A stretch of DNA of 64,000 nucleotides from Buchnera aphidicola (Pemphigus immunis) (GTDB taxonomy: Bacteria; Pseudomonadota; Gammaproteobacteria; Enterobacterales; Enterobacteriaceae), in NCBI RefSeq assembly GCF_964059115.1, contig NZ_OZ060408.1, positions 310,001 through 374,000 of the forward strand, read 5' to 3'. Below the pieces are notes generated by a model. That model was not told the DNA's origin. It saw only the letters and a list, made by a program, of their open reading frames with translations, and made no database searches. Shown piece by piece: positions 31,330 through 50,732 of the stretch (positions are counted from its first letter, which is position 1; the number at the start of each line of letters is the position of its first letter). The position numbers were made by a program, and so were the translations under genes.

Positions 31330-32360
31330 ATGAATTATAAGGAGCTTATTATTTTTAATCTTACTCAATCAAGTAAATTAATTTCAAAAAATCATTTTCT
31401 TTTTACTAATAAAAAAATAATTTTCTCAGGAAATATACAAGATCAAATTCCTTTTTATATCGAAACGATCTCAACCATAGTTTTTACAAATATGTATGAT
31501 ACTTATAAAAAATTAAGTTTTCTAAAAAGAAAAAAAATATTTTACTCAATTTTTCTTAATAAAAAAATTATTTTACAATTTGATACCTTAATATATTTTT
31601 GGCCTAAAAATAAATCAGAAGCAAAATTTCAGTTAGAATATTTATTTTCAATTTTAAAAAAAAAACTAATGTTTTTATAGTAGGAGAAAATTGTAGTGGA
31701 GTTAAAAGTTCAATATTAATGTTAAAAAATTGGATTATGTTAAAAAAAATTGATACAGCTAAACATGCTATACTTCTTTATGGAAGTTTAAATGAAAATT
31801 CATACTTTCAATTAAAAAATTACTTTAATAATCATACATTACAAAATTATAAAATAAAAACTTTACCAAGTGTATTTGGACATAAAAAAATAGATGCAGG
31901 TAGTAAATTACTTATTTCTACTTTTACTGATAAGATGAGAGGAAATATATTAGATTTAGGAACAGGTTCAGGAATTCTATCTATATTATTAGACAATATA
32001 TCAAAAAAAATTCATTTGACTTTAACAGATATTAATCTTATTGCTTTATTATCATGTAAAATAAACTTATACCATCATAACATTAACGGTAATATATTAT
32101 CCAGTAATTTATACAATGATATAAACAAGAGATTTGATATAATAATTAGTAATCCTCCAATACACAGAGATTTAAAAATATCTTTTAAGACAATAATAAA
32201 TATGATTAAAAATTCCGTAAATTATTTAACAAAAAAAGGAGAATTAAGATTTGTTACAAATACATTTTTATCATTTGATAGGATATTAAATGATACCTTT
32301 AATGAATATACTATATTAAAAAAAAATAAATATTTTAAAGTTTACCAAGCTATTGTTTAA
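31330..32360 (+). CDS. rsmC: 16S rRNA m2G1207 methyltransferase, frameshifted at an A10 run
   Basis: Two adjacent frames together give one RsmC of about 343 residues, the E. coli length. The first (31330-31680) covers the degenerate N-terminal half, with DTLIYFWPKNKSEAKFQLEY as in E. coli. At an A10 run (31656-31665) the frame runs into a TAG at 31678. With one more A it continues as TNVFIVGENCSGVKS into the catalytic half, which has the SAM motif LDLGTGSGILS, the NPP motif IISNPPIH, and ends YFKVYQAIV. Both halves are well conserved, so I read this as one gene with a single-base lesion at a slippery tract, possibly repaired by polymerase or ribosome slippage. The start is uncertain (ATG 31330 or ATT 31351). 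Confidence 0.88.
31339..31344 (+). promoter_or_regulatory. Strong Shine-Dalgarno inside the rsmC reading frame
   Basis: AAGGAG lies 9 bases after the ATG at 31330 and six bases before an ATT codon at 31351. The residues after that ATT align with the E. coli RsmC start, so initiation at AUU is possible; otherwise the ATG at 31330 adds seven residues. Confidence 0.35.
31656..31665 (+). repeat. A10 tract at the rsmC frameshift
   Basis: Ten consecutive A. Eleven (or eight) would join the two rsmC frames. Confidence 0.9.
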
Positions 32361-46018: not shown

Positions 46019-46042
46019 AAAATCAAATTTAAGGTAGTGGAA

Positions 46043-46975
46043 ATGCGCATATTTTCCATAATTTTTCCAGGACAAAGTATAAAGATAAAAGGAATATTAG
46101 CTTCATCATTATATCAACATCCTATTATCAAAAAAACATTTGAAGAATCATCCTATGCTCTCGGTTATGATTTATTTAAATTAATAAAAAATGATCCAAA
46201 AAAAAAATTAAATCAAAGTGAATTTTCACAACCAACAATTTTAAGTATATCTGTTGCTATTTATCGTTTATGGCGACATAAAAAAGGACCTAAACCATTC
46301 ATTATGGCAGGTAATAGTTTAGGAGAATATTCAGCTTTAGTATGCGCTAAAGTAATTACATTACATGATGCAATAAAATTAGTTAAATTTCGTGGTAAAT
46401 TAATGCAACAATTAGTACATAACATACCAGTTGCTATGTCAGCGATTATTGGTTTAAATAAAGAAAAAATAATTGATATTTGTAAAATTTATAATACAAA
46501 TAAAGTAGTAGAACCATCAAATTTTAATTCATTAAATCATATAGTTATATCAGGCCACAAAGAAGCAGTAGAAAAAACTAGTGTTGCTTGTAAAAAATAC
46601 GGCGCTAAACATATATTTCCATTATCTGTTAATATTGCTGCTCATTGTAAATTAATGCAACCGGCTAAAGAAAAAATGATGTATATTTTAAATAATATTA
46701 AATTTAATGAACCAACATGTCCTATTATTAATAATATTGATGTAAAATGTGAATCTTCTAAAAAAAAAATTTGTGAAGCCTTATTAAAACAACTAACAAA
46801 ACCAGTAAGATGGCATGAAAGTATAGAGTACATGATTAAAAAAGGCGTGTCATTAATTTTAGAAGCAGGTCCTAATTCTACTTTAACAAATATAAATAAA
46901 AGAAATTTTTTTTTAGAAGCAATATCATTACATAACAGAAAAAATTTTTTAAAAGCTCTAAAATTAACAAAATAA
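46043..46975 (+). CDS. fabD: Malonyl-CoA:ACP transacylase
   Basis: Loads malonyl groups onto acyl carrier protein. 310 residues from the ATG at 46043 (E. coli 309), supported by AAGG eight bases upstream; the in-frame GTG at 46037 is rejected. It keeps FPGQ, the substrate Arg in KFRGKLMQQ and the catalytic His in NIAAHCKLM. The nucleophile elbow reads GNSLGEYSA, where the family has GHSLG, so the Ser is present but the residue before it is Asn. Downstream fabG overlaps closely. Confidence 0.95.
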   Translation: MRIFSIIFPGQSIKIKGILASSLYQHPIIKKTFEESSYALGYDLFKLIKNDPKKKLNQSEFSQPTILSISVAIYRLWRHKKGPKPFIMAGNSLGEYSALVCAKVITLHDAIKLVKFRGKLMQQLVHNIPVAMSAIIGLNKEKIIDICKIYNTNKVVEPSNFNSLNHIVISGHKEAVEKTSVACKKYGAKHIFPLSVNIAAHCKLMQPAKEKMMYILNNIKFNEPTCPIINNIDVKCESSKKKICEALLKQLTKPVRWHESIEYMIKKGVSLILEAGPNSTLTNINKRNFFLEAISLHNRKNFLKALKLTK

Positions 46976-46979
46976 AAAT

Positions 46980-47716
46980 ATGATAATAAAAAAAAAACTG
47001 CAATAGTGACAGGAGCATCTCGTGGTATTGGCTTAGATATTGCAAAAAAATTAGCAAAAAAAGGAATTTTTGTAATTGGTACTGCCACAACCTTATTAGG
47101 TGTACAAAAAATTAATAATTATTTAAAAAACTATGAAGGACAAGGTATCGTATTAAATTTACATAATTCTATCAGTATTAAAGAAACAATAAATAAAATT
47201 TATAAAAATTTTAATAATATTGATATATTAGTCAATAATGCTGGTATTAAATGTGATAAATTATTAATTAATATGACTACAAAGAATTGGATTGATGTAT
47301 TAAATGTTAATCTAACAGGAATATTCCATCTATCAAAAGCAATTATATCTTCAATGATAAAAAATCGGCAAGGCCGTATTATTACAATTGGCTCTATCGT
47401 TGGAAACATTGGAAATTATGGACAAACAAATTATGCAGCAACTAAATCTGGACTAATTGGATTTCATAAATCTCTAGCATTAGAGGTAGCATCTTATGGA
47501 ATAACAGTAAATATCATTGCTCCAGGATTGATTAAAACAGATATGACAGATACTCTTAACTATAAAAAATATAAAAAATATATCGAAAGAATACCTATGA
47601 AACGCTTTGGAGAAGTTAATGATATCTCTGAAGCAGTAATTTTTCTAGCATCTAATAAAGCATCTTATATAACAGGTCAAACATTGCATATCAATGGCGG
47701 TATGTATATGTGTTAA
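46980..47716 (+). CDS. fabG: 3-oxoacyl-ACP reductase, frameshifted at an A10 run after the start
   Basis: NADPH-dependent reduction in fatty acid elongation, normally essential. From ATG at 46980 the frame reads MIIKKK through an A10 run (46988-46997) and then stops at TAG 47004. One more A gives MIIKKKTAIVTGASRGIG, about 245 residues in all (E. coli 244) with first-strand Ile-Val, cofactor motif TGASRGIG, NNAG, the catalytic Ser in ITIGSIVG, and YAATK. The only in-frame start as written is the GTG at 47006, which would remove the first beta strand of the Rossmann fold. A functional product therefore probably depends on slippage. The start lies 5 bases after the fabD stop. Confidence 0.9.
46988..46997 (+). 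repeat. A10 tract at the fabG frameshift
   Basis: Ten consecutive A right after the start ATG-ATA-AT. Eleven would join start codon and body of fabG. Confidence 0.9.
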
Positions 47717-47767: not shown

Positions 47768-48007
47768 ATGAACACCATAGATAACCGTATTAAAAAAATT
47801 ATTTCTGAACAATTAAGTATAAAAGAAAAAGATATACTTAATTATCACTCATTTTCAAAAGATCTCGGTGCTGATTCACTTGATTTCATAGAATTAATTA
47901 TGAAATTAGAAGAAGAATTTAATATTGAAATATCAGATAAAGATACTGAAAAATTTAGTACAGTAAAGAATACTATTGATTATATTAAAAACATTTTAAA
48001 AAAGTAA
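47768..48007 (+). CDS. acpP: Acyl carrier protein
   Basis: 79 residues (E. coli 78). The phosphopantetheine Ser is in [10 protein letters not shown] near 38, the acidic helix II is intact, and the C-terminal helix follows. It carries growing acyl chains. The gap from fabG is 51 bases. In E. coli fabF, pabC and mltG come next; here a 279-base spacer leads straight to tmk. Confidence 0.97.
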
Positions 48008-48952: not shown

Positions 48953-49919
48953 AGAGATTATACAACAACATCAAATAGGAAAGGCCCATCATGCTATCTT
49001 AATTAACACATGTAGAGGCATAGGTGTGCTAAATCTTTTTTGGGCTATTACTCGTTGGTTGTTATGTAAAAATCGAAAAGACATAAAAAGTTGTGGTAAA
49101 TGTCATAGTTGTTATTTAATGATGTCTAATAATCATCCTGATTGGTACCAACTAAAAATAAAAAGTAAAACTAATATATTAAGTGTTGATATAATCAGAA
49201 AAATTATTGATAAAGTATCTCAGACATCTCAACAAAATGGAGAAAAAATAATATGGATACCAGATATTTCATATATTTCTAATTCAGGAATTTGTGCTTT
49301 GCTAAAAATTTTAGAAGAACCTCCTAAAAATACCTGGTTTTTTATTGTAAATTATAATGCACTCAATATATCTTCAACTTTACGTAGTCGCTGTTTTTCA
49401 TATACTTTATTTCCACCTTCAGAAAAAAAAAGTTTAATTTGGTTAAAAAAAAATAATTATTGTAAAAATGAATTACTATCTTTGACAGCTTTACGCATTA
49501 CAGAAGGTGCTCCTCTTTTAGCAAAAAAAATAATTCAAGGAAATTTATGGTCAGAAAGAAAATTATTTTTTTTTAATTTAGAAAATGCTATTTACAAAAA
49601 AAAATTGTTTAATTTATTATTTTTTTTTACTAAAAAAAACATATATGTATCTATTTATATAGATTGGCTTTGTTACTTACTATTTGATGTCATTAAATGG
49701 AAATATAATTTATTTCCATACATACAAAATTTAGATAAAAAAAATTTTATTATATATTTATCTTTAAATTGTACTATTACGTTTTTAGATCATAGTATTC
49801 AGTCTTGGATAATGTGTCGACACAGACTAACACATATTATGGGAATTAACTATGAATTATTATTAGCAGAACAATTATTAAATTGGGAAAAAAAAATATT
49901 TTATAATGAAAAACTTTAA
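48912..49919 (+). CDS. holB: DNA polymerase III delta-prime subunit
   Basis: Clamp-loader subunit of DNA polymerase III. 335 residues (E. coli 334). INWYPWLIKPYKE aligns with the E. coli start RWYPWLRP. The zinc module CGKCHSCYLM near 68, the conserved LLKILEEPPKNTWFFI and the SRC arginine finger-like motif STLRSRCFSY are present. It overlaps tmk at its start and tatD by 14 bases at its end. Confidence 0.95.
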   Translation: MLINWYPWLIKPYKEIIQQHQIGKAHHAILINTCRGIGVLNLFWAITRWLLCKNRKDIKSCGKCHSCYLMMSNNHPDWYQLKIKSKTNILSVDIIRKIIDKVSQTSQQNGEKIIWIPDISYISNSGICALLKILEEPPKNTWFFIVNYNALNISSTLRSRCFSYTLFPPSEKKSLIWLKKNNYCKNELLSLTALRITEGAPLLAKKIIQGNLWSERKLFFFNLENAIYKKKLFNLLFFFTKKNIYVSIYIDWLCYLLFDVIKWKYNLFPYIQNLDKKNFIIYLSLNCTITFLDHSIQSWIMCRHRLTHIMGINYELLLAEQLLNWEKKIFYNEKL

Positions 49920-50732
49920 TAAATTAATCTCATCAAAAAAAAATATATTTTTAATAGATTCACATTGTCATATAGATCTCCTAAAAAAAGCAAAAACACA
50001 TTACGGAATAGAAAATATATTAAAAAAATCCATTGAAAATAATATAGGTCTAATTTTAACAATATCCACTTCTATAAAAAATTTTCTACACATAAAAAAA
50101 AAATAGGAAATCACAAAAATATTTTATTCTCATGTGGAATTCATCCCTTATACTTAGATAAGAATAATAAAATAAATTTAAAGTTTTTGAAAAAACTGGC
50201 ACAAGAAAATGATGTTATTGCATTAGGAGAAACTGGTCTAGATTATTATTACCAAAAAAAAAATAAAAAGGAACAAAAATACGTATTTCGTAAACATATT
50301 CAAACTAGTATTAAATTAAATAAACCACTTATAGTGCATACTAGAGAATCTATCGATGATACCTTATCTATTTTAAAAGAAACAGAATCAAAAACATGCA
50401 AAGGAATTATACATTCTTTTACTGGAAATATATCTTCTGCTAAAAAAATATTAGATATGGGATTCTATATCTCTTTTTCAGGAATCATTACTTTTAAAAA
50501 TGCAGATGAAATACGTAAAACAGCAAAATACATACCTTTAGACCGTTTACTAATAGAAACCGATTCTCCCTATCTAACCCCTGTACCAAAACGTGGAAAA
50601 GAAAATCAACCATCTTATTTAAAATATATAGCTGATTACATTGTGAAACTAAGAAAAATTAACATGGAATATTTTACAGAAATTACACAAAAAAATTTTT
50701 ATAAACTCTTCCAGTTAAAAGATAAAAAATAA
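49906..50732 (+). CDS. ycfH: TatD-family metal-dependent hydrolase YcfH, frameshifted at an A10 run
   Basis: Two frames join into one TatD-like protein of about 275 residues (E. coli YcfH 265). The first, 49906-50106, has the metal motif DSHCHIDLL and stops at TAG right after an A10 run (50094-50103). With one more A it continues as IGNHKNILFSCGIHPLYLD, then ALGETGLDYYYQ, PLIVHTRES, HSFTGN, and ETDSPYLTPVP, all family signatures. Members are nucleases or deacylases; this one is related to a D-aminoacyl-tRNA or DNA repair type. Apart from the tract both halves are intact, so a functional product via slippage is plausible. It overlaps holB by 14 bases. Confidence 0.88.
50094..50103 (+). repeat. 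A10 tract at the tatD/ycfH frameshift
   Basis: Ten consecutive A directly before TAG. Eleven (or eight) would keep the frame open. Confidence 0.9.

What the first reader, a model, noticed from the sequence alone, without database searches (positions are those of the whole stretch)
46980..47008. Essential fabG is out of frame at an A10 tract right after its start codon
Directly seen: ATG at 46980 runs through A10 (46988-46997) into TAG at 47004, while the rest of FabG is fully conserved in the other frame. The only start in that frame is the GTG at 47006, which would cut off the first Rossmann strand. FabG is normally essential, and no second copy is visible. A transcript with one extra A, or a -1 ribosomal slip on the A-rich codons, would give a 245-residue protein. 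Transcriptional slippage at poly(A) rescuing broken genes has been reported for insect endosymbionts; applying it to fabG here is inference.
Basis: partly seen in the sequence, partly recalled or inferred. Interest (0 to 1): 0.75.

Follow-up and report, generated by a model that had tools for sequence, protein, structure and literature searches.

The report
Recurrent poly-A frameshift in Buchnera fabG
In this aphid symbiont a fatty-acid gene is out of frame by one base at a run of ten A's right after its start codon; two related symbionts keep the same break, others seem to have gained it separately, and the gene still evolves as if it makes a working protein, probably because copying slips at the A-run.

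Summary
Confirmed: ATG 46980, A10 at 46988-46997, TAG at 47004, FabG body in the other frame, no second fabG found in the genome. The same ATG-A10-out-of-frame layout is in two relatives (94% and 78% FabG identity; one is Buchnera of Pemphigus obesinymphae), where GTG 47006 is GTA, so initiation there is not the shared solution. dN/dS between the out-of-frame copies is low (0.032/0.224; 0.13/0.60). In 112 classified fabG loci the start-proximal tract is out of frame in 15 of 31 with nine or more A and in 0 of 81 with fewer; a FabG tree needs at least 9 to 11 changes. Of 13 clear cases 12 need one extra A. In the window rsmC and a tatD-like gene are broken the same way at A10. Best explanation: a real, old frameshift, tolerated because RNA polymerase adds an A in some transcripts, as reported for other Buchnera and Blochmannia genes. 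Not shown: slipped mRNA or protein. A -1 ribosomal slip is not excluded for the +1 cases, and FabG essentiality in Buchnera is not established. A known kind of thing; new, as far as I could search, are fabG as a recurrent site and the one-sided phase.

The parts
46980..47006 (+). Zero-frame mini-ORF: fabG start ATG to in-frame TAG (8 codons plus stop)
46988..46997 (+). A10 tract where the frame is lost; one extra A in the mRNA, or a -1 ribosomal slip, would join the frames (inferred)
   Evidence: same A10 in G002 and G003
47006..47716 (+). FabG body (3-oxoacyl-ACP reductase), out of frame with the ATG by one base; GTG 47006 is the only ATG/GTG/TTG in that frame from 7 codons before to 30 codons after this position
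46037..46975 (+). fabD, upstream neighbour; stop TAA 46973-46975, four bases before the fabG ATG
47768..48007 (+). acpP, downstream neighbour
31656..31665 (+). A10 tract that breaks rsmC (pieces 31492-31665 and about 31665-32351), same phase; identical A10 in G002, in frame in G003
50094..50103 (+). A10 tract that breaks a TatD-family gene (49906-50732), same phase; identical A10 in G002, A11 and in frame in G003

Best explanation
fabG of this Buchnera lost one A from its start-proximal tract, probably in the ancestor it shares with G002 and G003. The gene stays functional because RNA polymerase slips on the A10 tract and adds an A in a fraction of transcripts; those mRNAs encode the 245-residue FabG, the rest end after eight codons. 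Shown: the shared out-of-frame layout, selection on the downstream frame, recurrence at this site only with tracts of nine or more A, and the one-sided phase. Inferred: that mRNAs are heterogeneous, that transcription rather than translation is the slipping step, and that the fraction is enough for the cell.
For: Same ATG, A10 and double stop in three genomes with FabG identities of 94% and 78% to the window. dN/dS between out-of-frame copies: G000-G002 0.032/0.224, G000-G003 0.13/0.598, against 0.203/1.022 for G000 and the in-frame G001. 112 classified fabG loci, in/out of frame: tract 0-8 A 81/0; 9 A 5/6; 10 A 7/5; 11 A 2/2; 12 A 1/2; 13 A 1/0 (Fisher 1.9e-10; 2.6e-9 without the two unclear loci). 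FabG tree: minimum 11 changes, 9 without the two unclear loci. Phase: 12 of 13 clear cases need +1, in line with the report that in Buchnera 151 of 157 transcription insertions but 16 of 57 deletions lay in homopolymers (PMC5574713, passages). In 24 genomes, the 23 junctions counted also sit on sense-A runs of ten or more, 17 needing +1 and 6 the opposite (or +2); a -1 ribosomal slip cannot mend the latter, though 5 of those 6 are two sites shared within genus g110. The review PMC5009743 (passage) cites 12-50% corrected transcripts for such endosymbiont genes (its reference 244, which I take to be Tamas 2008).
Against: No RNA or protein was seen. Traverse and Ochman detected no transcription error that restored a frame (PMC5574713, passage). 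In-frame ten-base coding runs keep their length in G003 in 7 of 14 cases, so conservation of A10 as such is not special. Long tracts also mutate faster in replication (recalled), which alone would link tract length and frame loss; the tree-paired test of that link is weak (7 pairs on starred branches, median p 0.0625). Without the window clade fabG is not significantly more often out of frame at ten A than internal tracts (2 of 9 against 14 of 179, p 0.17); its excess rests on nine-A tracts.
Confidence: 0.6

Rival explanations
1. The frames are joined by -1 ribosomal slipping on the A-run during translation, with uniform A10 mRNA.
For: In the zero frame the run offers AAA AAA AAA codons; all three broken window genes and 12 of 13 clear fabG cases have the phase that a -1 slip mends.
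Against: A slippery heptamer needs seven A (recalled), yet 0 of 38 fabG loci with 7 or 8 A are out of frame. Opposite-phase cases (fabG of G395; 6 of 23 internal junctions, at 3 distinct sites; a start-proximal A10 in G094 by my reading) cannot be mended this way. No stable downstream structure in the window (z 0.09) and no Shine-Dalgarno-like stretch just upstream (by eye).
Confidence: 0.15
2. Assembly or population effect: the true tract is A11 in all or part of the genome copies, and A10 is an under-call or a majority variant.
For: All three out-of-frame tracts found in the window are A10 and need +1, as an under-call would give; eleven-base runs are rare in the window (one, against 20 of ten bases).
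Against: Thirteen eleven-base runs are called in this genome, 5 of 13 inside long open frames; G003 calls A11 in frame in its tatD-like gene but A10 in fabG. The P. obesinymphae genome paper used Illumina NovaSeq reads (PMC9116674, passages; that L011 comes from this paper is my inference). An under-call would hit genes alike, but at nine A fabG is out of frame in 6 of 11 loci, other start-proximal tracts in 0 of 23, internal spanned ones in 0 of 479.
Confidence: 0.12
3. FabG starts at GTG 47006, coupled to termination at the overlapping TAG, and works without its first nine residues.
For: TAGTG overlap at 47004-47008. In 4 of 15 out-of-frame loci (window, G279, G094, G408) a GTG or TTG lies at or one codon before that residue.
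Against: The codon is GTA in G002 and G003; 8 of 15 out-of-frame loci have no ATG/GTG/TTG in frame from 7 codons before to 30 codons after it; E. coli FabG has nine residues before the matching Val.
Confidence: 0.05
4. fabG is a young pseudogene on the way out, as in Buchnera lineages that have dropped fatty-acid synthesis.
For: FabG is not proven essential in Buchnera; 2 of 11 genomes of genus g60 have no FabG match.
Against: Low dN/dS between out-of-frame copies with synonymous divergence up to 0.6, and an otherwise open frame in all three genomes; other enzymes of the cycle are kept.
Confidence: 0.05

Closest known systems
Poly(A) frameshifts of insect endosymbiont genes rescued by transcriptional slippage (Tamas 2008; known here only through passages of PMC5009743 and PMC3017870)
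   Same: Single indel in a long A-run, gene otherwise intact, same symbiont group (Buchnera), slippage as rescue
   Different: Gene is fabG, tract lies right behind the start codon, and the loss recurs in several Buchnera-like genus groups; no RNA data here
Conserved homopolymer frameshifts in Blochmannia (Wernegreen 2010, not seen; PMC3017870 passages report dnaX, dnaG, pth and others)
   Same: Frameshift kept between species without decay; genes of basic functions affected
   Different: Different symbiont and gene; here many more lineages compared, with no case below nine A and a one-sided phase
Programmed -1 ribosomal frameshifting at A-rich heptamers (dnaX type, recalled)
   Same: A-run in the right phase for a -1 slip
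   Different: No downstream structure in the window, no upstream stimulator seen, short-tract cases absent, opposite phase occurs elsewhere

Membership tests
Slippage-rescued poly(A) frameshift genes of endosymbionts | One indel in a long homopolymer, reading frame otherwise intact | tested here: met
Slippage-rescued poly(A) frameshift genes of endosymbionts | Frameshift kept across species without decay of the gene | tested here: met
   G000, G002, G003; dN/dS
Slippage-rescued poly(A) frameshift genes of endosymbionts | Mixed mRNA pool with a corrected fraction | not testable with these tools
   no reads available
Slippage-rescued poly(A) frameshift genes of endosymbionts | Full-length protein is made | not testable with these tools
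   no proteome available
Programmed -1 ribosomal frameshifting (dnaX type, features recalled) | Slippery A-rich heptamer in the zero frame | tested here: met
Programmed -1 ribosomal frameshifting (dnaX type, features recalled) | Downstream stem-loop that stimulates the slip | tested here: not met
   z 0.09 over 113 nt; window sequence only
Programmed -1 ribosomal frameshifting (dnaX type, features recalled) | Upstream Shine-Dalgarno-like stimulator | tested here: inconclusive
   none seen by eye; the tract is too near the start for one inside the ORF
FabG (3-oxoacyl-ACP reductase) | Score over the curated cut-off of the equivalog model | tested here: met
   TIGR01830 300 bits, cut-off 297.75, from the downstream frame alone; it stays below the cut-offs of the PRK05653 FabG models

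The most novel reading that the evidence does not exclude
The start-proximal A-tract of fabG is a maintained expression governor in Buchnera: lineages keep the gene one A short because directional RNA polymerase slippage sets FabG to a fixed fraction of the fabD-fabG-acpP transcripts at almost no cost (the aborted peptides are 5 to 13 residues long in the 13 clear cases). That would explain why fabG, unlike the other genes sampled, is out of frame already at nine A and almost always in the +1-needing phase.
Probability: 0.12. Interest if true: 0.8.

Novelty: new member of a known kind. Interest (0 to 1): 0.55.

Why it matters
It gives a natural series: the same gene and site, in frame or out of frame at 9 to 13 A, in many related symbionts. 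That makes three open points testable with RNA reads: the tract length from which Buchnera transcription mends frames, whether insertions beat deletions in vivo, and whether a start-proximal frameshift is merely tolerated or used. It also warns that annotation which drops frameshifted genes (as one Buchnera comparison did, PMC9116674, passage) can wrongly remove genes such as fabG and rsmC from pathway counts.

Tried and rejected
Second fabG copy: only FabI found. GTG or other in-frame starts: not shared by the out-of-frame loci. Stimulatory RNA structure: none in the window. Universal under-calling of long runs: rejected for this assembly by eleven-base runs inside open frames, and for some others by runs up to 17; not excluded for single tracts. 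Unusual conservation of A10 length as proof of selection: not supported (in-frame ten-base runs same length in 7 of 14 against G003 and 5 of 10 against G002). Sense-T tracts as a control: too few at ten or more (7 in frame, 0 out; p 1.0). Tree-paired test of tract length against frame state: underpowered. Fisher tests treat genomes as independent, which they are not. fabG excess at ten A: not significant without the window clade (p 0.17).

Limits of the counts. One search misses breaks near gene ends: the A9 break inside fabG of G224, seen by eye, lies in a tract that no hit spans, so it is in no count. In one search, 674 tracts of eight or more not spanned by a hit were left out, and I used 23 of the 30 junctions; dropped were three seen by one query only (G402, G218:9143, G003:63487) and four without a tract of nine or more in G001 (67780, 74316, 74722, 75014). 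Two of the 23 rest on two queries only (G021:10801, G218:13101). In one search the start of fabG was misplaced by truncated query ORFs, so fabG is effectively absent there. The names hinT, holB, and tmk or fabD in relatives are my reading of sequence and position, from no call.

Full report
WHAT IS THERE. The window lies in a 606,952-base genome. The closest named hit for its FabG is Buchnera aphidicola of Pemphigus obesinymphae (L011, 94% identity; that search may leave out records very near the window). The gene order is fabD-fabG-acpP-tmk. The fabG ATG at 46980 runs through A10 (46988-46997) to TAG at 47004; the FabG body is in the other frame from 47006 to 47716. No ATG, GTG or TTG lies in that frame between the fabD stop at 46973 and GTG 47006. 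The genome has one FabG match; the second SDR hit is FabI. With one extra base the protein would have 9 + 236 = 245 residues; E. coli FabG (1i01) also has nine residues before the matching Val.

SAME BREAK IN RELATIVES. G002 (same locus sequence as L011 in the stretch compared) and G003 carry the ATG, the A10 and an immediate double stop in the ATG frame; the codon at GTG 47006 is GTA in both. G001, the fourth genome of the genus group, has a six-A run and is in frame. So the frame was probably lost before the three split. Nei-Gojobori counts downstream of the tract give dN/dS 0.032/0.224 (G000-G002), 0.13/0.598 (G000-G003), 0.13/0.407 (G002-G003) and 0.203/1.022 (G000-G001): the broken copies are under purifying selection about as strong as that seen against the intact one. 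In G003 fabD has lost its stop and reads through the fabG start and the A10 in the ATG frame, so slipped mRNAs there would also encode a FabD-FabG fusion (inferred).

RECURRENCE. I read the fabG 5' end in 118 loci, chosen by similarity to the window's FabG or by small genome size. The other genomes, roughly 300 of 392, most but not all of them over 1 Mb, were not read. Six loci were set aside (L140 and L175, with an altered motif but in-frame ATG by eye; L097, L163, L235, L236, broken internally), leaving 112. In/out of frame: tract of 0-8 A 81/0; 9 A 5/6; 10 A 7/5; 11 A 2/2; 12 A 1/2; 13 A 1/0. The 15 out-of-frame loci fall in six genus groups (g1 3, g45 3, g74 3, g53 3, g92 2, g19 1). On a FabG tree the state needs at least 11 changes, or 9 without G329 and G184, where no simple ATG precedes the tract. 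40 of 109 inner branches are open, so the number is unsure, and it does not tell gains from losses. Of the 13 clear cases 12 need +1 and one (G395) -1 or +2 (binomial p 0.003, or 0.012 with the window clade counted once).

OTHER BROKEN fabG. G224 has one internal A9 break (L097), needing +1. The three g110 genomes examined have two internal A-tract breaks in fabG: the first (A12, A11, A10) needs +1 in each; the second is A11 in G112 (+1) and A10 in G218 and G289 (-1 or +2). The stretches between and after the tracts are under purifying selection (dN/dS from 0.041/0.479 to 0.173/0.61). A gene just upstream, fabD by position, is broken at A10 in all three.

HOW SPECIAL IS fabG. In 24 genomes (40-80 kb each around fabG, window included) I looked for conserved proteins that continue in another frame. 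Of 30 junctions I counted 23; all 23 sit on sense-A runs of ten or more. Internal runs spanned by protein hits, in/out of frame: A8 1009/0, A9 479/0, A10 165/14, A11 47/6, A12 20/3, A13 and longer 20/0; T8 169/0, T9 92/0, T10 6/0, T11 1/0. Start-proximal runs of other genes, among 670 genes: A8 48/0, A9 23/0, A10 11/2 (a third flagged row, A12 in G218, is not truly start-proximal). At nine A fabG is out of frame in 6 of 11 (5 of 10 without G184), against 0 of 23 (p 3e-4; 1e-3 without G184). At ten A the excess (5 of 12 against 14 of 179, p 0.003) is not significant without the window clade (2 of 9, p 0.17). The comparison was opened by a finding about fabG, but apart from the window clade the loci were not chosen for their frame.

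IN THE WINDOW. rsmC (tract 31656-31665) and a TatD-family gene (50094-50103) are broken at A10 with the same phase. Both A10 are identical in G002; both genes are in frame in G003. G001 has an A11 break in the same gene as rsmC.

ARTEFACT. A systematic loss of one A at long runs would mimic this. Against it: 13 eleven-base runs are called in this genome, 5 of 13 inside long open frames; G003 calls A11 in frame in its tatD-like gene but A10 in fabG; the P. obesinymphae paper used NovaSeq reads (PMC9116674, passages); and an under-call should not prefer fabG. How the window's own genome was sequenced is unknown to me. Minority A11 copies in a polyploid cell (polyploidy recalled) cannot be excluded.

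MECHANISM. Transcriptional slippage fits best: at this site frame loss appears only from nine A upward; the phase is mostly the one mended by an insertion; and in Buchnera 151 of 157 transcription insertions but 16 of 57 deletions lay in homopolymers (PMC5574713, passages). That paper saw no restored frame. Corrected fractions of 12-50% are cited in PMC5009743 (passage) and about 30% in PMC3017870 (passages). A -1 ribosomal slip would serve the +1 cases, but not the opposite-phase ones (fabG of G395 and 6 of 23 internal junctions, 5 of these at two sites shared within g110), and finds no stimulator in the window.

ESSENTIALITY. One network model of Buchnera APS drops fabB, fabG and fabI as isolated enzymes (PMC2649895, passage); APS is said to lack fabH and fabZ (PMC3246468, passage); fabG is tabled as lost in Phyllaphidinae (PMC11188193, passage). 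This genome keeps FabD, AcpP, FabI, one ketoacyl-synthase and one FabA/FabZ-type match, so a working elongation cycle is plausible but not shown.

NOVELTY. Slippage-tolerated poly(A) frameshifts in Buchnera and Blochmannia are known. A search for Buchnera, fabG and frameshift gave one paper, on louse symbionts, seen as a listing; one for Buchnera, fabG and slippage listed 12 of 52 papers, none with all three terms. Tamas 2008 and Wernegreen 2010 are not held, so a mention there is not excluded. New, within these limits, are the recurrence at one start-proximal site, the absence of cases below nine A and the one-sided phase.

Noticed in passing
window 31492-32351: rsmC broken at A10 (31656-31665), same A10 and break in G002, in frame in G003, an A11 break in the same gene in G001.
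   Followed up: partly
window 49906-50732: TatD-family gene broken at A10 (50094-50103), same in G002, A11 and in frame in G003.
   Followed up: partly
L163, L235, L236 (G112, G218, G289, genus g110): fabG has two internal A-tract frameshifts, and the gene just upstream (fabD by position) one, in all three genomes examined, with the fabG stretches under purifying selection; making FabG would need two slips in one transcript.
   Followed up: partly
L212 / G003 (fabD-fabG junction): fabD has lost its stop codon and reads through the fabG start and A10 in the ATG frame, so slippage would also give a FabD-FabG fusion.
   Followed up: no
G094 (L256-L257) and G224 (L274-L275): Start-proximal A10 in a tmk-like gene of G094 and A12 in a gene two downstream of acpP in G224, both in the phase opposite to fabG (or needing +2); names by position, from no call.
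   Followed up: no
G432 and G435 (genus g60): No FabG match in 2 of 11 genomes of this genus group, suggesting loss of fatty-acid synthesis there.
   Followed up: no
window, whole: A/T runs about halve in number per added base up to ten (7:143, 8:76, 9:38, 10:20) and then drop to one at eleven, while some other genomes (G094, G055, G218) have runs of 16-17.
   Followed up: partly
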